Under the pieces are notes generated by a model. The model ran no database searches and was not told the DNA's origin. It saw only the letters and a program-made list of their open reading frames with translations. The position numbers were made by a program, and so were the translations under genes. This document shows positions 34,819-46,282 of a stretch of DNA of 60,265 bases, in pieces (the stretch's first letter is position 1; every line of letters starts with the position of its first letter). The stretch is from an uncultured bacterium (GTDB lineage Bacteria; Patescibacteriota; Gracilibacteria; Absconditabacterales; Absconditicoccaceae), in assembly GCA_946408385.1 (NCBI GenBank), contig CAMJSB010000007.1:1-60265 (forward strand). Direction: 5' to 3'.

Positions 34819-37800
34819 ATGACTACATTAGAATTGATGGATTCAATACTTCAATATTGGAAAGATAATAACACATTTCAAAGATCAATTGACGAAAGAT
34901 CAGAGCAGATGCAATTTCGTTTCTTCGATGGACCTCCATTTGCTTCATGAGATCCTCACTATGGACATTTATTAGCATGAGCTATCAAAGACGTTTTCCC
35001 TCGTTATATGACGATGAGAGGTTTTCGTGTAGAGAGAAAATGGTGATGGGATTGTCATGGATTGCCTGTAGAAAAAGCTGTAGAGAAGAAACTATGAATT
35101 GATGGTAAAAGAGATATAGAAAATAAAATCTGAATTAAAGCATTTACCGAAGAATGTAGAAAATACGTAGATAATACAAACGAAGTTTGGAAATGGTTTG
35201 TAGACCATTCTGGACGTTGGGCAGATATCGAGCATCCATATCGTACTATGGACTTGGATTTCATGGAAAGTGTAATGTACTGTTTTTCAAATATTTATAG
35301 ACAAAATCTAGTTTATAAGTGATTCAAGGTTCAGTGGTATTGTCCAAGCTGTGCTACACCACTTGCAAATAATGAAGTAACGGATGGATATGAAGATAAA
35401 ACTGATACAGCAATTACGGTCAGATTTAAATTTACTAATAAAGCATACTCAAATAGATTCAACTATGAAATCACTCCAAGTGACGAAGCTGTGAATGTAG
35501 TTTGCTGTGTAATCAAGAGAGATGGAAAATATTTACTAGAATATTGAGTTAAAGCTCAGAAATATGTTTTCCCTGGATGAAAAGTAGAAAAATGAGATAG
35601 TATAGAAAAAACTGTAGCTAAAGAAATCAAAGAAGAACTAGATGTGGAGACAAAGAGCTGTAAAATTTTATGAGAATTTAAAGAATTACTCAATTGAAAT
35701 ATCTGGAATTTAATTTATGTTGAAGCTGAAATAGAAGGTGAGCCAAAAATTATGGAACCAGATAAAATTACTCAACTTCAATGGGCTGAAATAAGAGAAA
35801 GTGAAAATGAAATCTGAATGGAAGTGGTTATCGATTGAACAGTTATGGATGATCCACAAGAAATAATCAGCCAGTTTTATGATTTATATATAGCTCACAA
35901 TGAAATTTGGTCCAAAATTCAGGCAGATGCTCCAGTTTATGCATTGGCTTGGACTACTACTCCATGGACATTACCATCAAATAGCTTCTTGGCAGTTTGA
36001 CCAGAAATTCATTACAGCATGGTTTATGACAAAGAAAGTCATGAATACTATATTTTAGCAGATGCTTTACTCAAGAAGTATTATAAAAATCCTGAAGATT
36101 ATATTTTGGTAAATAAAATTAAAGGTTCAAAATTGGTCTGAACATTCTATATCCCACTATTTGAATATATCAATAATTCTAAACTTCCTGCTGAATACAA
36201 AGATAGATATTTCCAGATGATACCTGGAGATTATGTAAGTACAGAAGACTGAACATGAATAGTACATATTGCTCCAACATTTGGACAGGAGGACTTTGAA
36301 GTAGTTGCAGATTTATTCTGAGCTGACAAAGCATTAGACTGGTTGTTTATTGCAGTAAATGAATATGGAGAATTTGATCATCAAGTTCCAGACTATGAGT
36401 GACAGAGTGTTTTGAAAGTTAATAAAGATATTATAGACCGTTTAAAAGCTGAAAGAAAATTAATTAAATCTGAATCAATAACGCACTCATATCCTCACTG
36501 TTGGAGATGTCATACACCTCTCATATCCAAAGCAATGTCATCTTGGTTTATCAAAGAACAACAGATGAATGCTCAGACGCTTGAAGATGCAGAAAAGATT
36601 AAATTTGTTCCAGAAAATGTTTCAAATAGATTTGTAAATTGATTAAAACAAGCTCCAGACTGGAATGTTGCTAGAAATAGATATCGATGAAGTCCTTTGC
36701 CAATTTGGGCAAACGTAGACGATACATTGGACACATTCTCTCTTTCAACATTGGACGAGATGTACCAATTAACTCGTTCATGATCAAAGAATCTGACTAA
36801 ATTCATGTTCATTCGCCATGGAAGAACTGATTGTAACGTCAGTCGCAAGCAGGATTCACGTTGAGATTTAGCTCATTTAACGGATGAATGAAAACAGCAA
36901 GTAGAACAAGCAAGAAATGAACTAACATATTTAAAAACAGATCCAGATAAAATTTTATTAATCTCTCCTATGGAAAGAGTTCGAGAAACAGCTTTACCTA
37001 TAATGAATGATTGGTGCTCAGCAGAGCAGGTGAGTGCAATTAGAAAAAACTATGAAAATTTTCAATCAAAATTTAGAGAATTACGAGATTCTAATCAGAT
37101 TATTGAATATCTTCAAAATCCTGAAAATGAGACATTATATGACCTTTGATATGGAGTTTGGTGAGATTTCCGCGACTGTGAATTCTTGCAAATATCACTC
37201 CAGTGAAAAGATGAAGAAGCTGGATTACATGTAAAACATCCGACAGATACTCCATTATTTCCATGAGATGAGTCTATCGACCAAATGATTAATAGAACTC
37301 AGATTATGGTTCGTAAATTAGCTGAGAAATTTGCTACGAAAACAGTAGTTGTAATTTCTCACGGAGATCCAATTTGGTGAATGAGATCAGCTTTCAGACC
37401 TTTGGTTTATGCTAGAGATAAAGCGAAATATTATCCAAGAAACGGAGTAATTAACATTCATTATCGAGATAATGATGCAAAAACAGAGGTTAATCTTCAC
37501 AAACCATATGTGGATACATATTGGTGAATTAGAGATGGGAAAATATATAAGAGAATTCCAGAAGTGATGGATTGTTGGTTTGAATCATGAGCAATGCCAT
37601 TCGGACAGGATCACTATATCGGACAAAAAGAGAAGGAAAATCAGAGTTATACAGCAGAATTTATAGCTGAATGATTGGATCAGACTAGATGATGGTTCCG
37701 TTCATTACATATTCTAAATCATGCAATTAAATGAAATAATGCGGCAAATAATATCGTAGTAAATGGACTAGTCCTCGCAGAAGATGGAAAGAAAATGTCA

Positions 37801-38850
37801 AAAAGTCTGAGAAACTTCCCAGATCCTCGTGGATTGATAGAGCAGTGGTGATGAGATGCATATAGAATTTATGTATTGAGTGCTCCAGTAGTTCGTGCAG
37901 AACCTATGAGATTTAGCGAAAAATGAGTAGAGCAGTCATTCAAAGATTATATCCTTCCACTTCAGAATGTATATAATTTCTTTGAAACTTATGCTAAGAT
38001 AGATCAATGGAAATCTGATTGAAATCAAATTTTTGCAATGAGAGATGATAGTGAAATCTCGGATTATAAAGAATTAGTAGAGCAGTTAGTTCGTGTAAAT
38101 CCAGATATAATTCTAACTTCTGATAATACCAAATGAGAAGCTGTAAAATCATTAATCAACAAATATACACCAAAAGCTAAAGATATCGAAATTAAATCAG
38201 CAGATTTATCAGATTACTTTAATCTAGTTAAGTGATTTGAAACTAAACGTGTATTGATTCTTGCATCAGATGAACAGATTAAATCAATATGGAATACTAT
38301 TTCATGAAAGGCAGATAAATCATTAGAAAAATGAGTTGTACTTCCATTAGTTACATATCAAATTACAAATGATTTGGATGCTTGGTTACTCTCAGAATTA
38401 CATCAAACTTTAATCAAAGAAGATGAACTTCTTCAAAGATACGCTCTTGATGACGCTATTAAGTCAACATTAGATTTCTTAGATAAACTTACAAATCGAT
38501 GGTTACGTCGTTCTAGAAGAAGATTCTGGGCTAATGGAATGGATGCAGACAAGAATGCTGCATATTCTACATTGTACACAGTTCTCAAAACTTACTTACA
38601 AATGCTAGCTCCATTCATACCATTCATTACTGAGAAATTGTGGCAGAATTTAGCAGATTTCTCTACAGAAAAGATTGATTCAATTCATCTTACATATCGA
38701 CCAATGGCTTCAGAATTGTACATTTCACCAGATTTGATGGAAGAAATTGCACAAGTTCGTAAGATTATCAAATTAGCATTATTTGTTCGTGCTAAGAATA
38801 AGGTAGCTATTAAGCAACCATTACAAAAGTTATCAGTTAAAATGGAATAA
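34819..38850 (+). CDS. ileS: Isoleucyl-tRNA synthetase with inserted Nudix and histidine-phosphatase domains
   Basis: 1343 residues, well above the usual 900-1100. Class I motifs are intact: P-H-Y-G-H (residues 46-50) and K-M-S-K-S (992-996), with [11 protein letters not shown] in the editing region and C-W-F-E-S-G before the catalytic half. Residues about 222-361 are a Nudix hydrolase domain (V-F-P-G-G-K-V-E-K-G-D then A-K-E-I-K-E-E-L). Residues about 655-900 are a histidine-phosphatase domain (F-I-R-H-G-R-T-D with R666 and H667, S-P-M-E-R-V-R-E-T and V-V-I-S-H-G-D-P). A third insertion at about 1070-1180 resembles a degenerate small phosphatase. All are in frame with no stop. The tail ends in the anticodon-binding domain. 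Confidence 0.95.
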
Positions 38851-38851
38851 A

Positions 38852-38899
38852 AAAAAGAGTCCTCCAATTCCTAGAATGCTAGGATAAGGGGGACTTTTT
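38852..38899 (+). terminator. ileS terminator
   Basis: gtcctcc and gggggac form the outer stem, attcctag and ctaggat the inner stem, followed by a T-run; it begins right after the ileS TAA. Confidence 0.85.
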
Positions 38900-38908
38900 C
38901 TAGAAGGA

Positions 38909-39028
38909 TTAAAATATCCACATTAGTAACCATATAATAGCTACTATACCATTCATTAGAATGCCTACCTTGATGGCTGCGGCATCTTCCATTTTTTTGT
39001 CGTGTTCAATGTTGTTTCTTTGTGCCAT
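38909..39028 (-). CDS. Small membrane protein (39 residues)
   Basis: The frame reads M-A-Q-R-N-N-I-E-H-D-K-K-M-E-D-A-A-A-I, then a hydrophobic stretch V-G-I-L-M-N-G-I-V-A-I-I-W-L-L to the TAA. A charged head and a single membrane span in so short an ORF suggest a real small protein, but no family is known. It is convergent with ileS, which ends in a terminator just before it. Confidence 0.5.
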   Translation of the reverse strand: MAQRNNIEHDKKMEDAAAIKVGILMNGIVAIIWLLMWIF

Positions 39029-39179
39029 GTTTTTGTTCGTTATGTCATTTTTTTTGTTTAGCTGTGCTAAAATAAACAACTCCTTCTTAAATTCAATAGG
39101 AATTTTAGTATTCTTTTATTGATTTTGTCTATATTTTTAGTTTACTGTAAAAAATAGATTTTATATAGTTTTTAAAATT

Positions 39180-39674
39180 ATGGATTGTGGAAACTATTGT
39201 ATATCACGAATATTATCAAAAATCAATTATAATTTTGAACGATCAGATTTTATATTTTCTGAAGTTTTCCCTTGAGTATCATTACTCCCAAAGATCTGAA
39301 TTTTATTATTTGAACATTCCCCAAATGTTGGGATAATACATGAGAAACAAGACATTTTCATAAATTTAAAAGATGAAGAACTTCCATTATTAGAAGAGTA
39401 TAAACATCGATTAAATGAATTTCAAAAATTGTGATGAAAATATTCTAATCATGAAATTAATATTAAATACTTAAAAGAAAATCTGAAAGATAATTATTGT
39501 ATCATCCCAATAAAGAAAGGGGAGTGAAGTCATTTCGTGATTTTAAATTCAATAGATGAAAATCAAGTAAATTTAGTGGACAATAAAAAGTGAGAATTTA
39601 GTGTCTCTATTGTTGAATTTGAAGATTTAATGGATTTAGAAAATTGAAAATATGTTTTATTCGCAGGTAAATAA
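39180..39674 (+). CDS. C39-like cysteine peptidase
   Basis: 164 residues. The start M-D-C-G-N-Y-C matches the D-C-G active-site pattern of C39/papain-like peptidases, with Cys3 as likely nucleophile, and S-H-F-V-I-L-N-S then V-D-N (about 124-140) fits the catalytic His and Asp region. It has no signal peptide. Its TAA overlaps the ATG of the transporter by one base, so the two are cotranslated. C39 enzymes often cut leader peptides of exported peptides, which fits the peptide and radical SAM genes nearby. An in-frame stop upstream shows that the protein starts at the catalytic motif. Confidence 0.6.
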
Positions 39675-40876
39675 TGATTAAAAAGATAGGATTAAAATTT
39701 TTACGACCATTTTACACACAAAGTATAATCCCTAGTTTATCTAAGTTGATACTCCCATTTTATGTAATTTATTTTTTAGATATTTGACTAACTCTTTGGC
39801 AAATCGCATTGATTGGTAGTTTTAGAAGTGTTGTATCATTAATATCAGAAATTCCAACATGAACTATAGCAGATTTATACTGAAAGAAAATCAGTGTTAT
39901 TTTATGATTTATTTTATCATGAATAACTGTATTTTGTATCCCATTTTCCCATTCATTTGTTGGAATTTGTATTATATTTTGTATCAATGCATTGACAGAA
40001 ACTTTGTTTTCAGGTTCAGACCAGGCTTGGGTATCTGATGTGATAGAAAAAAATGATAAAAAACTGATTGATTCATATTTTTCTTGGAATAGAAGTATTC
40101 GTAATTTTTGATTTATTATAGCATGAATATTAGCGAGCTTAGTTGCAAAATATCTTTGATATGATTGGTTATGGTTTGTTTATGGAGCATGAACTATTAT
40201 AGCAGGAATTGTCCTTTGCTTTGCAGAAAACTGAAAAGAATGATATGAAGAAGAGTGAGAAGATTGGTTGAAAAAAGATTTTTGGCTTCATATAAAATCT
40301 ACATTTAAGTATATAGCAAAGAATAAAGTTATTTGTTTACTATTCATTTGAATTGCAGTATTCTACATTATTGATGAATTGACTGGACTTATACGAACTC
40401 CATATATTCAAGAATTATGAATAGATATAGATAATCTCGGATTTATTTACTGAATTATCTGAGTTTGCTGAATTTTTGCACCTTTAATTGCAGAAAAAAT
40501 TCTGAAGATGCAGAAAAATTCTATGTTCTATATTCTGTGAATATGTATTTGAATGGCAGTTCTGCTTGTAGTATCAAGTCTTTCTACATCCGCAATTCTT
40601 ATTATTTGAATTTTTGTGGTATATAATTTCATTGATGATTTTATTTTACCGATAGATGAAACGGTAACGAGTAAAATAGCAGAGAAGTCCCAAAGGTCTA
40701 CAATTCTATCAGTGAAATCTATGGTAGAAAATTTGGCTTGTATCGTTTGATGACCTTTGGCTTGAATTTTATTAGGTTGTGTTTCTTATGCTCAATGATT
40801 GTTAGTTGCTGCGGGATTGATGGTGATAATCGGGGTTGTTTATTATATTAGCATAAAAAGGGTAGCATGTAATTAA
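39674..40876 (+). CDS. MFS transporter
   Basis: 400 residues with about 12 hydrophobic segments and the MFS pattern of two six-helix halves split by a charged loop near residues 195-220. Between helices 2 and 3, G-T-I-A-D-L-Y-G-K-K resembles the MFS motif G-x-x-x-D-R-x-G-R-[KR]. Many Gly are TGA. It overlaps the C39-like gene by one base. Export of a processed peptide is a reasonable guess from context. Confidence 0.85.
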
Positions 40877-40893
40877 CATCCTACCCATTTTTT
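40855..40893. terminator. Terminator between transporter and precursor peptide genes
   Basis: gggtag (40860-40865) pairs with ctaccc (40881-40886) next to a T-run; the stem overlaps the transporter stop. It can end both the + transporter transcript and the minus peptide transcript. Confidence 0.7.
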
Positions 40894-40905
40894 GTAGAGT
40901 CTTCA

Positions 40906-41070
40906 CTAGTCTTTGCCACCAGTACAAGAGCAATTACAACTTTTGCAACCCGGTCCACAGAGAGAATACTTCTCTATTTTTGGGTTAACTTTACCTAACA
41001 CAGCCTGAGCCGTGCCTTTCCTGACATAAGGCTCCCTTGCGCCAAGAAAGTTAACTTTTCTAGTAATCAT
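40906..41070 (-). CDS. Candidate RiPP precursor peptide, Cys-rich tail
   Basis: 54 residues. The first 36 residues form a polar, basic leader-like part (M-I-T-R-K-V-N-F-L-G-A-R-E-P-Y). The last 18 contain C-G-P-G-C-K-S-C-N-C-S-C-T-G-G-K-D, with five Cys in an x3-x2-x-x spacing. Cys-rich cores next to radical SAM/SPASM enzymes are typical substrates for thioether formation (sactipeptides, ranthipeptides). All seven Gly use GGN, none TGA, as in the radical SAM gene. There is no good Shine-Dalgarno. The gene is too short for ORF callers with a length cutoff. A metal-binding small protein is the main alternative. Confidence 0.6.
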   Translation of the reverse strand: MITRKVNFLGAREPYVRKGTAQAVLGKVNPKIEKYSLCGPGCKSCNCSCTGGKD

Positions 41071-41081
41071 AACTTATTTTG

Positions 41082-41110
41082 TTGACTTTTATATCAACTA
41101 TCACTATAGT
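41082..41110 (+). promoter_or_regulatory. Promoter of the amidohydrolase gene, with palindromic -10
   Basis: TTGACT (41082-41087) and TATAGT (41105-41110) are 17 bp apart. The -10 lies in actatagt (41103-41110), a perfect 8-bp palindrome that also offers a -10 to the opposite strand toward the precursor peptide (TTGATT at 41133-41128, 19 bp spacing). gttga/tcaac (41081-41098) is an inverted repeat in the same region. Confidence 0.6.
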
Positions 41111-41164
41111 AGAAAAAATAAAAATTAAATCAATAGAAAATTATAAATCATTTTTCGTAAAACA

Positions 41165-42130
41165 ATGATAGAAGATTTCGTGTTTTCAGAAAAAGAAAAA
41201 AACAGTATTAAACAAAGTATGGATTTAATTCCTGACAATATTTTTGATATTCATAATCATGTATATTTAAAAAGCAATATTCAAGAAGAACTTCAAGATG
41301 CACTTTTCTATGATGAATTTTCTTTTGATGATTTACCTAAAGCAAAAAAAACTCTTTATCCATGAAAAAATGTGGAATCAGTAGTGTTTTGACAGCCTCA
41401 GATGAGTATTCAATATATAAAAAACAACAATGATTATATAAAATCGTATTCAAAAAATAAGTTTTTACTTCTGCCTGATGATGACATTTATATTGAAACT
41501 GAACTAATGTCATGAAAATGGAAAGGGGCTAAAGTCTATTGATTTAACGAAAAAATACTAAGCAATATATCTATTAAAACTTTAACTATACTTGATAAAA
41601 AAAGTTTACCCTTAATAATTCATCTTCCGTTTAATATAATAAAAAATCAAAAAGAACTTTGTAATTTATTGAAAAGATATAAAAATGTAATGTTTATCGT
41701 TGCACACTGAGGAAATGTCCAAAAATGCAAAAGTGATTATGAATGATATATAAAAGCATTACAAACATTGAAGAATTTTGATAATATCTGATTTGATACT
41801 TCGTGTATTAATGACAAAGAATTTTTAAAAATTTTAGTAGATTCTTTTGATAGAGAAAGAATTTTTTATTGATCAGATTTGCCAATCTCTCTTTTAAGAG
41901 GAACTGTGTTGCCGGGTAAAAATTGAACAGCAAGAATAATCTCTGATAAATTTATTAAATGAATTGATAATAACTTAAGTAGAACTATAATAAAAAATCT
42001 TAACTTAGATCTATCTAACATTATAAATATACAACTAACTACAATTTCACTGTTATGAAAAACATTATCTTATGATGATCTAGAAAAAATTTTTTACAAA
42101 AATACTAAGTCTCTTAACCTTTTTTTCTAA
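41165..42130 (+). CDS. Amidohydrolase-like TIM-barrel protein
   Basis: 321 residues. F-D-I-H-N-H-V (about 28-34) provides the metal-binding H-x-H of the first strand, I-V-A-H-G-G-N (about 179-185) a later His, and I-F-Y-G-S-D-L-P (about 235-242) the final Asp, all in the order of the amidohydrolase_2 family. It may hydrolyse or decarboxylate a small molecule or a modified peptide; the substrate is unknown. It is convergent with the methyltransferase gene and overlaps its end by 17 bp. Confidence 0.8.
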
Positions 42131-42662
42131 TTTCAATATAGCCAATATGATGAACATGGGCCCCGATGGGAGCATGATTTTCTTCAAGGAAGAGTTCTTC
42201 TTTGTATTGAATAGAAAAAGAACTATTATTTGAATTTTCAAAATCATCAAAAGTATAGAATGAAAGAGGTTTTGAGCTCATAGTCTCATCATCTGGGAAA
42301 AAGAAAGATAAAGTAAATACTCAATTATCTTCTAATAACTCAACCAATTCTGGCAACAATAATTCAAGAAAAAACTTCTTTTTTAAGAATGGAACAACAT
42401 TTAGTAATAATATTAAAGAATATTCTCAACTTAAAATAGATTCTGGAAGTTCTCTTAAATCGGCATTAATAAATTTTATATTTGGATGTCATTGTAAATA
42501 TTCGGGTCGTAGCCAATTTTCTTTTGATTCGTTATCCAATGCAATAACTTTATTTCAAAAGCTAGCACAAAAAATACTATATCTTCAATCTCAAGCTCAA
42601 AGATCAAGGATGGTTCATTGATAATTAGGAAGTAGTTTTGCTAATTGTTTGCAAAGAATCAT
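42114..42662 (-). CDS. Class I SAM-dependent methyltransferase
   Basis: 182 residues. Motif I is I-L-D-L-G-A-G-D-G-R-Y-S (about 20-31), with its Gly codons as TGA, then V-I-A-L-D-N-E and L-I-L-L-L-N-V-V-P-F for the later strands. Length fits a tellurite-resistance/TehB-like small methyltransferase, but the substrate is not clear. It lies on the same strand as the radical SAM gene, about 85 bp after its terminator. Confidence 0.85.
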
Positions 42663-42718
42663 AAAAGTAAAATTACAAAATGAATGCAACAATCATAGAA
42701 AAATAAATAAAATATTCA

Positions 42719-42749
42719 AGGAGAAAAAGGAGGCTAAATTGCCTCCTTT
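42719..42749 (-). terminator. Terminator of radical SAM gene
   Basis: aaaggaggc (42726-42734) pairs with gcctccttt (42741-42749); the minus strand continues into a T-run. The stem overlaps the radical SAM stop codon. Confidence 0.85.
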
Positions 42750-43770
42750 AACGCCAGCATTGAGGATCTTTCTTGTAAAAAGAACCATAAGTGCCGTAGG
42801 ATACAGCAGGGCATCCTCTACAATAATTGAAAAGTTCGCAGTTATAGCACTCCATTTTCTCAAATTCACGATATGGAGCAATTCTTTTCGAGAAGAATAC
42901 TTCCTTAAAGGAATCAATAAGAGCATTACCAATCTTGCTAGAGAACCTTCTGCAAGCATAAATGTCGCCATTTGACAGCACACACATGTGTCGCATCGCA
43001 CACCCACAACCTTCATAAATAGTATTCTCTCCTTTTGTTTTAAAGAGGCCTTTTTCATAAAGGAATGGGGTCCAAAGATGATCTTTTAAGAAGAATTTTG
43101 TTTCACGATATGCAAGCTCATCATAGACATTCCATACTTGTGATAGAAAATTACGATATTCATTAGGTGGAATGTTATAAATTCCACGGTCCAATGAAGT
43201 CGGACAATAGCGAGCAAATGCAAATCCTCCCACAGGAATCTCGACAACATACCGAATAACATCAATCACTTCTTTGTAGTTCATTTGAGAAACAGTCATC
43301 ATGATATGAGATTCGATTTCTGCTTTATTGAGAATGTAGATTGCTTCAATTGTAGCATCGAAAGATCCAGGCTTACGGATAGAATCGTGAGTGTGTTTCA
43401 TACCATCAATTGAAAGTTGATAGGTTTCGCATCCAAGATCCTTTAAACGTTTTGCCACTTCAAAATTAAGATGAAAAGGGTTTCCTAGGATGTCAAATGG
43501 TATATTTTTCTGATGAAGATAGTTGAGGATTAACCAAATCTCATCATGCATGAGAGGATCTCCGCCAGTAATAGCAACCGACGGATTGCATTCTAATAAT
43601 TCGCAAAGGTTACAAAAATTCTCTACGATTTTTTGAACATTCGTAAATGACAAATAGCTTCTTTTAAATGATTTGTCATTGAAGATGTAGCAATGCTTGC
43701 ATCTTTGATCGCAGTCGTCTGTGATATGCAACTGCATACCAAACCAATGGTTGAAACTTTGGTTACTCAT
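42748..43770 (-). CDS. Radical SAM/SPASM peptide-modifying enzyme, TGA-free
   Basis: 340 residues. The radical SAM cluster motif is C-D-Q-R-C-K-H-C-Y (residues 19-27), followed by A-I-T-G-G-D-P-L and S-I-D-G. The C-terminal SPASM-like region has Cys in G-C-G-C-A-M, V-C-x-n-C-R-R and M-E-C-Y-N-C-E-L-F-N-Y-C-R-G-C-P, ligands for auxiliary Fe-S clusters. Such enzymes modify ribosomal peptides. All Gly codons (about 20) are GGN and the gene reads intact in the standard code, unlike its neighbours. A strong AGGAGGT lies 7 nt before the ATG with a TTGACA/TATATA promoter. Both suggest transfer from a standard-code, SD-using bacterium. Confidence 0.93.
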   Translation of the reverse strand: MSNQSFNHWFGMQLHITDDCDQRCKHCYIFNDKSFKRSYLSFTNVQKIVENFCNLCELLECNPSVAITGGDPLMHDEIWLILNYLHQKNIPFDILGNPFHLNFEVAKRLKDLGCETYQLSIDGMKHTHDSIRKPGSFDATIEAIYILNKAEIESHIMMTVSQMNYKEVIDVIRYVVEIPVGGFAFARYCPTSLDRGIYNIPPNEYRNFLSQVWNVYDELAYRETKFFLKDHLWTPFLYEKGLFKTKGENTIYEGCGCAMRHMCVLSNGDIYACRRFSSKIGNALIDSFKEVFFSKRIAPYREFEKMECYNCELFNYCRGCPAVSYGTYGSFYKKDPQCWR

Positions 43771-43777
43771 ATTAAAT

Positions 43778-43784
43778 ACCTCCT
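43778..43784 (-). promoter_or_regulatory. Shine-Dalgarno of radical SAM gene
   Basis: AGGAGGT on the minus strand, 7 nt before ATG 43770. Other genes checked in the window lack a comparable site, so this one is exceptional. Confidence 0.85.
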
Positions 43785-43829
43785 ATTTCTTTAATTTGTT
43801 TGTATTAATGTTTTATTTTCACATAAGGA

Positions 43830-43857
43830 TATATACTAAAAAATATAAAAATGTCAA
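43830..43857 (-). promoter_or_regulatory. Radical SAM gene promoter
   Basis: Consensus TTGACA (43857-43852) and TATATA (43835-43830) on the minus strand with 16 bp between them. Confidence 0.7.
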
Positions 43858-43915
43858 GTTGATTAATTTGGGTAAAATCTTACACGAGGTATATATCTAA
43901 AAATATATAATTTTC

Positions 43916-44391
43916 TTAGATGTTTCCTCATTTTAACATTTTTATCCAATCGTTGAATTTTTGAATCCATTCATAATCATTCTCTGTCATTTCATTAGAA
44001 TCTGACAATAATTTTTTAATTTTACATTCTTCATCGGGTGAATTTGGAATATATACTTTATCATAGTTACAAATAATTTTCTGTGAAGAAATTCAATCCC
44101 ACTTTTCATTTACTACATAAAAATCTTTTAATTCAGAATTAAATGTAGCATCAAGATCAATCCATTCTCAACCAATATTCATCTTTAAAAATACGTGGTA
44201 TCATTTTTTATTTGCATATCATCAATTGAAACAATTTCATATCATAATTCTTCGGCCAAAAGTTTAGAAACTGTACCTTTTCCACTTCAGCTTTTTCATC
44301 ACATTTTTCAATCCAAACTTTTTTGTCATAATTTATGGACTTTACTTACTGGAATTATAAAAAACGTTCAATGCTTTTGTCTAACTGAAAT
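43916..44391 (-). pseudogene. Broken transglutaminase-like or P-loop gene remnant
   Basis: Two overlapping minus-strand frames carry protein-like sequence. The upstream frame reads G-G-K-S-G-S-G-K-G-T-V-S-K-L-L-A-E-E-L-G and stops at a TAA near 44191. A second frame, open from about 44265 to TAA 43916, reads Y-H-V-F-L-K-M-N-I-G-G-E-W-I-D-L-D-A-T-F, resembling the His/Asp part of transglutaminase-like proteins. Joining them by a frameshift near 44200 gives one continuous domain. The G-S-G-K-G-T stretch also looks like a P-loop, so the identity of the N-terminal part is open. Likely a decayed gene. Confidence 0.45.
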
Positions 44392-44552
44392 TTAAATGAA
44401 ATATTCCAATAGTGCAAGGTTATAAAATATTTTTTGATTATCAAGGAAATTTGTAATTATTAAAAAATTTTTTCACTCTAAATTTAAATACAAGAAAAAT
44501 TTTTCATAGGTTAGTGGTTGTTTTATTTTACAATTTTTTACATTGTTATAAT

Positions 44553-44592
44553 TAAAAAAAACCTAGAAACTGATTACAGCACTAGGTTTAGT
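44553..44592 (-). terminator. Terminator
   Basis: On the minus strand aaacctag pairs with ctaggttt, followed by a long T-run, directly after the TAA at 44604. Confidence 0.8.
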
Positions 44593-44603
44593 GATAAAGT
44601 GTA

Positions 44604-44969
44604 TTAGTACAAAACTTTTTTTGGTACAGAAATGCAAAGTTCTTTGATTTTTTCATAAGATTTTTTTATATCATTTTCTGTTTTAGATTTTTTGTATAAA
44701 TCCAAAGTTTTTTTTCTTAATTGTTCGAGTAAGGTTACTTTTTTATTTAACCAATACCCGAATACAATCAGCAGAATAAGTGCTATCGCAGAAATGATAA
44801 TCTTAAGGGTAAAATGCGCATCTCCCAGGGGATTGTACACGAACAAAAACAACATACCTAATAAGTAAAATGCTACACAGTAGATTAGCATGAAACACAA
44901 GTCTTCACGCTCTTTTCCATTTTCAAATGTTTTAATTAACCATTTTGGTAGTTTAGTTTCTTCTTTCAT
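44604..44969 (-). CDS. Two-span membrane protein, TGA-free
   Basis: 121 residues with hydrophobic segments at about 25-45 and 54-72, flanked by charged Lys/Glu-rich ends. The C-terminal 45 residues are a likely helix. Its four Gly are GGN-coded. No family recognised. It has its own promoter and terminator. Confidence 0.7.
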   Translation of the reverse strand: MKEETKLPKWLIKTFENGKEREDLCFMLIYCVAFYLLGMLFLFVYNPLGDAHFTLKIIISAIALILLIVFGYWLNKKVTLLEQLRKKTLDLYKKSKTENDIKKSYEKIKELCISVPKKVLY

Positions 44970-44983
44970 AGATAAAAAAAATC

Positions 44984-45012
44984 ATTATAGTTTTTTTGTT
45001 TTGCAGATACAA
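44984..45012 (-). promoter_or_regulatory. Promoter of the two-span membrane protein gene
   Basis: TTGTAT (45012-45007) and TATAAT (44989-44984) on the minus strand are 17 bp apart, 15 nt before the ATG. Confidence 0.65.
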
Positions 45013-45064
45013 AAATAAAGAACTGCTGTTCAAATTCAATAAAAATATAGAAATACTTGTGACA

Positions 45065-46282
45065 TTATTCAAATCTGAGAGCATCAATAGGTTGTAATTC
45101 TGCAGCTTTTTTAGCAGGTCCAATTCATGATACGATTCAGATTATAAATGTTAGAGTAGTAGCTAAAACTACCACATCCATTGTCATTGAAACATTGATT
45201 CACTCTATGTGAAAACTATTCACGAGTTGTATCGCTAGCCATGCCAAAATTATTGCAATTATTCACCCAATTGCAGTTACAACTACAGATTCTATCAAAA
45301 ATTGGGTGATGATATCCGCATTTAAAGCTCATATTGCCTTTCTGATTCAGATTTCTCTAGTTCTTTCAGTTACTGAAACTAGCATAATATTCATTACTCC
45401 AATTCCTCATACTAGCAATGAAATTGATCCAATAGCAGCAAGTAGATAAGTGAAAATTCACATAGCTTTATCAATTGCATCTCCAATTGCAGATAAAGAT
45501 GTGACAGTAAATCCTGCTAAATCGATATGTTTAACATTATATTTTCTCATAAGAAAATATTTTATTTTATTCATCCATTCATCCACATCATCATCGTATC
45601 ATAATATTACTGTTATGCTTCAGATTTTTGTAGAATTATCTACTTTTTGCTGATAGGTGGTAATCGGAATAAAAACCTGACTGAAAATACTTTCTTCTTC
45701 CAAGACTCAAATTATTCTAAATTTTCTATTATTGTAATATACATATTCTCAGATAGGATATACATCATCAAATAACTCATCCACAGCATTTTTATTAACT
45801 ATCGCAACATCTTCATTTTTATTCATATTCCTTTCTGAAAATTTATCTCAATAATCTCGGTCAAGGGCCATTTTGTCAAAATAATCTATCGGTACTCATA
45901 AAAATTGTCCCATTGCACTGTCATCGTCAGCATTTTTTATCATTCAAAGTGCAGAATTGCTATATGTGATTTTGCCGGTTAATTCTGGGAAATAGTATTC
46001 AAGTTCATCCATTAGTTCGGTAGTGAGAGTTACAGCTTTTACATATCAGTGTACATCATCATTTGTTCGCTGTGTGTATCATCAATTTGGAGTAATCGTA
46101 ATATTGTTCGTTATTAATGATGCCATTTGATCTTTTACTCATTGTTGAGCTCATGTTCCAAAAGACATTAAGAAAATTACAGAAAAAAGTCAGATAACAA
46201 TTCATAATACACTCAAAAATGATCTCATTTTATTTGAAATCAGATTTCATAACGCATCCTTAATGTAAGTAGAAAAGTTCAT
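45065..46282 (-). CDS. ABC transporter permease, MacB/FtsX type
   Basis: 405 residues. One N-terminal membrane span (about 22-42, preceded by N-K-M-R-S-F-L-S-V-L-G-I-V-I-G), a large extracytoplasmic domain (about 45-270) and three C-terminal spans with [24 protein letters not shown], the MacB signature. It ends P-I-D-A-L-R-F-E, also typical. It is the last gene of the regulator/adaptor/ATPase/permease operon and probably exports peptides or drugs together with them. Confidence 0.92.

What the first reader, a model, noticed from the sequence alone, without database searches (positions are those of the whole stretch)
42748..43784. TGA-free radical SAM gene with a strong Shine-Dalgarno: recent transfer
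About 20 glycines are all GGN-coded, while neighbours use TGA for many of theirs. It also has AGGAGGT and a near-consensus promoter, features missing from the other genes here. This points to a standard-code, SD-using donor (Firmicutes-like). Gene flow into a recoded genome is easy in this direction because TGA can be absent without harm.
Basis: partly seen in the sequence, partly recalled or inferred. Interest (0 to 1): 0.7.

Follow-up and report, generated by a model that had tools for sequence, protein, structure and literature searches.

The report
Borrowed peptide-modifying enzyme in recoded bacterium
A bacterium that reads the stop codon TGA as glycine, and whose ribosome has lost its Shine-Dalgarno reader, carries an intact peptide-modifying enzyme gene without TGA but with a donor-style Shine-Dalgarno site; it probably came from another candidate-phylum bacterium that uses the ordinary code, not from a Firmicute.

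Summary
Gene 42748-43770(-) codes all 19 glycines GGN, while 48 other window ORFs use TGA for 62%. AGGAGGT stands 7 nt before its ATG; in a 360-kb sample it is the only one of 231 genes with AGGAGG there. The host 16S rRNA has lost CCUCC, so the site looks like a donor relic. The promoter claim is weak.

The protein is a radical SAM/SPASM peptide maturase (TIGR04340, AcgM). Among 353 genomes of its class only this one passes the cut-off. The seven other genus genomes lack it, and one shows the flanks adjacent without a 3.08-kb block.

The donor does not look Firmicutes-like. The best tree puts the protein with standard-code Patescibacteria; two Bacillota placements are rejected, but a place just outside the Patescibacteria group is not. 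Those relatives carry a non-ACGX Cys-rich precursor before AcgM, usually with a methyltransferase. The same block here holds a TGA-free Cys-rich peptide (40906-41070), a plausible, unproven substrate, and a TGA-coded TehB-like methyltransferase.

Verdict: a real acquisition from a standard-code, SD-using donor, probably another Patescibacterium; a new variant of a known RiPP-like system. The nearest known relative is 53% identical, so the age is open.

The parts
42748..43770 (-). acgM-like gene, radical SAM/SPASM peptide maturase, 340 aa, 19 Gly all GGN, stop TAA
   Evidence: TIGR04340 424.5 bits over cut-off 400; PF04055 and PF13186 over gathering score; codons
43778..43784 (-). AGGAGGT, Shine-Dalgarno site, 7 nt from ATG; probable donor relic
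   Evidence: only 1 of 231 sampled genes has AGGAGG there; host 16S lacks CCUCC
43830..43857 (-). promoter-like TTGACA-N16-TATATA
   Evidence: such sites are not above chance in the window
42726..42749 (-). terminator-like hairpin (9 pairs, 5 G-C) overlapping the end of acgM
40906..41070 (-). candidate precursor peptide, 54 aa, Cys-rich C-terminus, 7 Gly all GGN, GC 0.43
   Evidence: best of 6071 ORFs against the G1000 and G698 precursors; 3.6-3.8% of composition-kept shuffles score as high
42114..42689 (-). TehB-like methyltransferase (true start probably 42662), 8 TGA and 3 GGN glycines
   Evidence: PF03848 28.4 bits over 20.4; 75% aa identity to a G007 gene at another place; codons
41165..42130 (+). 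amidohydrolase-like gene, 11 TGA; found only in the own genome among 49 family genomes
40847..43930 (.). 3,084-bp block absent from G004, where the flanks lie 30 bp apart
39674..40876 (+). left flank: MFS transporter, TGA-coded, conserved in G004, G006, G007
43916..44245 (-). right flank: remnant of a transglutaminase-like gene, intact (193 aa) in G004

Best explanation
The gene is an intact radical SAM/SPASM peptide maturase of the AcgM (TIGR04340) family that a code-25 bacterium acquired, after its genus had split, from a standard-code bacterium that uses Shine-Dalgarno sites, most likely another Patescibacterium. It entered one genomic spot with its promoter-like site, SD site and terminator, and, less surely, with a Cys-rich substrate peptide. 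Shown: the sequence features, family membership by score, absence from genus relatives, the empty site in G004, loss of the anti-SD in the host 16S, and precursor plus methyltransferase beside AcgM in Patescibacteria. Inferred: the donor group (favoured, not proven), the substrate, and the chemistry. By analogy with SPASM maturases (recalled), the CxxxCxxC [4Fe-4S] cluster would cleave SAM, the deoxyadenosyl radical would take a hydrogen from the Cys-rich core, and the auxiliary clusters would help to form a cross-link; the neighbouring methyltransferase may methylate the product. Because TGA is a sense codon here, a gene lacking it and ending in TAA reads unchanged, so the recoding did not bar this transfer. 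The SD site is a relic: start selection must rest on the AUG and an AT-rich leader (inference).
For: Family; invariant CxxxCxxC and other Cys kept. No TGA, high GC. SD outlier; SD-like tetramers at starts 5 of 231 against 74 of 855 at internal ATGs; CCUCC absent in the own genome and in 28 of 29 family 16S ends examined, own included. Patchy: 1 of 353 class genomes over cut-off, 0 of 7 other genus genomes; empty site. Donor: tree pairs window with G1000 and G698 (96/80), then L062 (95/78); Bacillota placements rejected. Cassette: a Cys-rich precursor upstream in 7 of 7 close Patescibacteria loci and a methyltransferase beside AcgM in 6 of 7; no methyltransferase found downstream in 76 other loci. 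Mobility: the G1000 cassette lies between serine recombinases and an IS481-type transposase.
Against: Nearest relative only 53% identical; long branches; p-AU 0.223 for a place outside the Patescibacteria group. Methyltransferase and amidohydrolase in the same block are TGA-coded, so the block did not arrive whole from a standard-code donor. Five other sampled genes with at least 10 Gly, including thymidylate synthase and a PhoH-like gene, also lack TGA. The peptide lies 1.7 kb from acgM, lacks an SD site, and its match to L062's precursor is nil.
Confidence: 0.68

Rival explanations
1. Recent transfer straight from a Firmicute.
For: Many Bacillota carry AcgM at up to 53% identity (L048).
Against: Tree placement with Patescibacteria; joining two Bacillota clades rejected; no ACGX-repeat peptide by pattern in the own genome although 73 of 79 testable relatives have one.
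Confidence: 0.08
2. Two-step history: the acg genes entered another code-25 bacterium first, and the mixed 3-kb block then moved into this species.
For: The block mixes TGA-free genes (acgM, peptide) with TGA-coded ones (methyltransferase, amidohydrolase); the methyltransferase has a 75% relative in G007.
Against: No other class genome holds a member over cut-off; a long stay in a code-25 genome should have brought in TGA.
Confidence: 0.2
3. Native gene, conserved in the lineage, that merely prefers GGN for expression or structural reasons.
For: A few other genes with at least 10 Gly lack TGA (6 of 214 with this one; 2 of 201 in G006).
Against: Absent from the 7 other genus genomes and over cut-off in none of the 352 others of the class; SD site; GC; empty site in G004.
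Confidence: 0.03
4. Assembly chimera or binning contaminant.
For: Genome is a draft: 22 contigs, 88.6% complete, 2.1% contamination; no reads could be checked.
Against: The gene is deep inside a 60-kb contig with TGA-coded genes on both sides; a stray piece would not be expected to place a promoter-to-terminator unit between host genes.
Confidence: 0.03
5. Transfer as described, but the enzyme is an orphan here: the 54-aa peptide is not its substrate.
For: Precursor similarity is weak (E 0.4-0.6 in 6071 ORFs; shuffles 182 and 191 of 5000); distance and TGA-coded genes between.
Against: Best-ranking ORF against both nearest relatives' precursors; TGA-free, Cys-rich, same block.
Confidence: 0.4

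Closest known systems
ACGX system: AcgM (TIGR04340, rSAM_ACGX) with AcgA ACGX-repeat peptide
   Same: Enzyme passes the curated score (424.5 against 400); 47-49% identical to Roseburia and Subdoligranulum AcgM
   Different: No ACGX-repeat peptide near it or by pattern in the own genome; candidate substrate has a non-repeat core; a methyltransferase lies beside it
AcgM cassettes of standard-code Patescibacteria (G1000, G698, L062; more distant G571, G712, G819, G734), seen here
   Same: Sister group in the best tree; Cys-rich non-ACGX precursor; methyltransferase beside AcgM in six of these seven
   Different: There the precursor is directly upstream of AcgM; here it is 1.7 kb downstream beyond TGA-coded genes
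SCIFF/ranthipeptide maturases (radical SAM protein 5wgg; family name recalled) and SkfB (6efn)
   Same: Radical SAM plus SPASM architecture, sequence match E 9.5e-14 and 1.1e-9
   Different: Far below the cut-offs of those families; other substrates

Membership tests
TIGR04340 (AcgM enzyme) | score over curated cut-off 400 bits | tested here: met
   424.5 bits, full length
TIGR04340 (AcgM enzyme) | radical SAM CxxxCxxC and SPASM domain | tested here: met
   C20, C24, C27 invariant; PF04055 69.2 and PF13186 24.2 bits, both over gathering score
ACGX system | neighbouring ACGX-repeat precursor peptide | tested here: not met
   none in small-ORF lists 42000-45100; no match to a three-repeat pattern in the own genome (the pattern needs GGN glycines, and the genome is 88.6% complete)
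Patescibacteria-type AcgM cassette | Cys-rich precursor peptide | tested here: inconclusive
   40906-41070 ranks first of 6071 ORFs for G1000 and G698 queries but with weak E-values; 828th for L062; shuffles 3.6-3.8%
Patescibacteria-type AcgM cassette | class I methyltransferase beside AcgM | tested here: met
   TehB-like, PF03848 over gathering score, but TGA-coded and closest to G007's gene
RiPP maturase | modified peptide product | not testable with these tools
   needs expression and mass spectrometry

The most novel reading that the evidence does not exclude
A precursor-AcgM(-methyltransferase) RiPP cassette, whose Patescibacteria form with non-ACGX Cys-rich cores and a linked methyltransferase appears undescribed, moves between candidate-phylum bacteria and has crossed into a recoded, anti-SD-less genome, where its Shine-Dalgarno site survives as a fossil that marks direction and relative youth of transfer.
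Probability: 0.45. Interest if true: 0.65.

Novelty: new variant of a known kind. Interest (0 to 1): 0.5.

Why it matters
It is a readable case of one-way gene flow into a recoded genome: TGA content and a now useless SD site together date and direct a transfer without a known donor, a test that could be run over all code-25 genomes. Whether UGA recoding isolates these bacteria genetically is an open argument in print (passages of PMC8080830). It also points to a Patescibacteria form of the ACGX-type system with other peptide cores.

Tried and rejected
Single-protein scans of genome and viral contigs found nothing; the alignment scans then worked. Phage records gave only 22-25% identity. A first leader HMM from ACGX peptides did not pick out the 54-aa peptide (4.1 bits, about tenth). 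NCBIfam knows no family for it, and plasmids hold nothing credible. The first tree with distant outgroups put the window at the base on a long branch; without them it paired with L062. Orthologues of the other TGA-free genes were sought in 340 kb of G006 and not found, which is uninformative. A viral scan for carriers of the Patescibacteria-type enzyme gave only the two loci already seen. Before the tree, 26 near-duplicate rows and the 3 distant outgroup rows were dropped. Papers: no paper holds 'ACGX' with 'radical SAM' or 'TIGR04340' in the open-licence library; a search for SPASM, radical SAM, Patescibacteria and RiPP (three of four terms) listed no Patescibacteria paper in its first 10 of 34.

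Full report
The object. The ORF at 42748-43770(-) encodes 340 aa and is open under the standard code. It matches TIGR04340 (rSAM_ACGX, AcgM) over its full length with 424.5 bits, cut-off 400, and Pfam radical SAM and SPASM over their gathering scores. The catalytic CxxxCxxC and all cysteines invariant in the alignments are present, so the enzyme looks intact. The nearest solved structures by sequence are the radical SAM protein 5wgg and SkfB. It is the only copy in the genome, and the window is one whole contig of it.

The observation. All 19 glycines are GGN. The 48 other ORFs chosen by script use TGA for 686 of 1106 glycines. The simple binomial figure (1e-8) is too strong: in the window plus 300 kb of other contigs, 6 of 214 genes with at least 10 glycines lack TGA, and all six have GC of 0.37-0.41; in 340 kb of the sister genome G006 it is 2 of 201. 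TGA absence is thus rare but not unique. GC (0.370) and GC3 (0.34) rank 6th and 5th of those 214.

The Shine-Dalgarno site. AGGAGGT lies 7 nt before the ATG. Of 231 sampled genes this is the only one with AGGAGG there, and SD-like tetramers are rarer at starts (5 of 231) than before internal ATGs (74 of 855). The spaced motif is not enriched over the genome (9 hits, reversed control 12). The reason is in the 16S rRNA: after helix 45 it reads GGGGATAGACTACCATTCTAA in place of a tail with CCTCC (the gene itself matches RF00177 from end to end). Of 29 family genomes whose 16S end could be read, 28 lack CCTCC, six genus members among them, own genome included; only G014 keeps it. Loss of CCUCC in SR1/Absconditabacteria is in print (passages of PMC10783764). 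The SD site is therefore foreign to this host and is best read as a donor relic. The promoter-like site is real but such sites are not above chance.

Where it sits. With window 37500-45200 as DNA query, the seven other genus genomes gave only parts. In G004 the stretch matching 39160-40846 is followed after 30 bp by the stretch matching 43931-44226, so the 3,084 bp between are absent there. G007 has a 76% DNA match to 42085-42716 at another place, a methyltransferase gene; this match stops just short of the acgM terminator. The block holds, left to right: a TGA-free 54-aa Cys-rich ORF (40906-41070, minus), a TGA-coded amidohydrolase-like gene (plus) known only from this genome among 49 of the family, a TGA-coded TehB-like methyltransferase (minus), and acgM (minus) with its terminator. 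So the block is mixed: only acgM and the peptide lack TGA (26 glycines in all).

Relatives in the same class. Of 353 genomes of the class, 85 have some match at E up to 0.001, but only the own genome passes the cut-off. The best code-25 relatives score 201 (G105) and 198 bits (G021) and use 19 and 21 TGA; G054, without TGA, scores 146.

Relatives elsewhere. Of 82 loci including two viral contigs, 73 have an ACGX-repeat peptide near AcgM; of the nine without, three are cut too short to tell. A phylum sample of 379 genomes gave one further strong relative, G571, and 380 genomes of its class gave eight at E up to 1e-60, two of them over the cut-off: G1000 (449) and G698 (433).

The tree. With 67 rows (26 near-duplicates and three distant rows dropped) the window protein joins G1000 and G698 with support 96/80, and L062 joins next with 95/78. 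Without the new Patescibacteria rows it pairs with L062 at 99/97; with three distant outgroup rows it lies at the base. Branches are long. Holding it with six Bacillota-clade rows or with nine Bacillota rows is rejected (p-AU 0.0002 and 0.0007). Holding it with all 57 other AcgM rows, outside the Patescibacteria group, is not rejected (p 0.223). The donor group is favoured, not proven.

The cassette. L062 and the six close G genomes (G1000, G698, G571, G712, G819, G734) all have a small Cys-rich peptide directly upstream of AcgM, none of it the ACGX repeat. Six of these seven have a class I methyltransferase beside it; G734 shows none on its short contig (families of four of them). Among 77 named or viral loci with enough DNA downstream only L062 has one, and L062 helped to build that model. 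SD-like AGGAG or AGGAGG precedes AcgM in L062, G1000, G712 and G819, so a Patescibacteria donor explains the SD site as well as a Firmicute would. In G1000 the cassette stands between serine recombinase genes and an IS481-type transposase, so it can plausibly move.

The candidate substrate. Against 6071 ORFs from the window and the sample, the window's 54-aa peptide ranks first for the precursors of G1000 (E 0.56) and G698 (E 0.42), and first with an HMM of three near precursors (E 0.076); it ranks 828th for L062 and third with all seven. Shuffles that keep the make-up of leader and tail reach the real score in 191 and 182 of 5000. An earlier HMM from ACGX leaders did not pick it out. The pairing is likely enough to test, not shown.

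How it would work. From knowledge of SPASM maturases (recalled): the radical SAM cluster cleaves SAM, the 5'-deoxyadenosyl radical takes a hydrogen from the peptide core, and auxiliary clusters bound by SPASM cysteines help to oxidise the intermediate, often giving a thioether. Which bond forms here, what the methyltransferase does, and what the product is for are unknown.

Reading. A standard-code gene that lacks in-frame TGA and ends in TAA needs no change to work in a code-25 cell, so this direction of flow is open; phages compatible with both codes are described for these bacteria (passages of PMC10746230), and gene gain by transfer is known in Absconditabacteria (passages of PMC8080830). 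New here are the SD relic in a host without anti-SD, the empty site, and the Patescibacteria form of the AcgM cassette, for which I found no paper in the searches named under Tried and rejected.

Noticed in passing
window 43916-44316: Remnant: the end of a transglutaminase-like gene (intact, 193 aa, in G004) next to a P-loop kinase start; a near copy of 44207-44308 lies at G000 C1:88098-88199 and in three sister genomes.
   Followed up: partly
L121 1008-2342, L127 6025-7059, L124 11842-13584, L130 10766-11395, L134 17937-18521: Five other TGA-free, GC-rich genes in the own genome: PhoH-like, thymidylate synthase, TldD-like, DUF502 and one unknown; candidates for further transfers.
   Followed up: partly
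L190, L191 just downstream of the radical SAM gene: More distant AcgM-like enzymes (G908, G788) are followed by a 37- and a 41-aa peptide, both ending in a CCHCSF(S/T)CT core.
   Followed up: no
L177, L186, L188, L189 upstream of acgM: A terminator-like hairpin stands between precursor and acgM in G571, G698, G712 and G734, as if to set their ratio (read by eye).
   Followed up: no
L119 5001-6038: An AcgM relative (46%) on a 504-kb contig of the viral collection, without an ACGX peptide nearby.
   Followed up: no
L193 (G014) against 28 other 16S ends: Within this one family the anti-SD ranges from intact CCTCC (one genome) through CCTCT and CCTTT to wholly changed tails, a gradient of its loss.
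   Followed up: partly
L167, L168: Code-25 genomes G021 and G105 carry several TGA-coded radical SAM genes in tandem, looking like a separate native peptide-modifying cluster.
   Followed up: no
L036 3992-5016: The acgM of Methanosphaera plasmid pNP174 is annotated as two CDS (radical SAM and SPASM parts), with an ACG-repeat peptide upstream.
   Followed up: no
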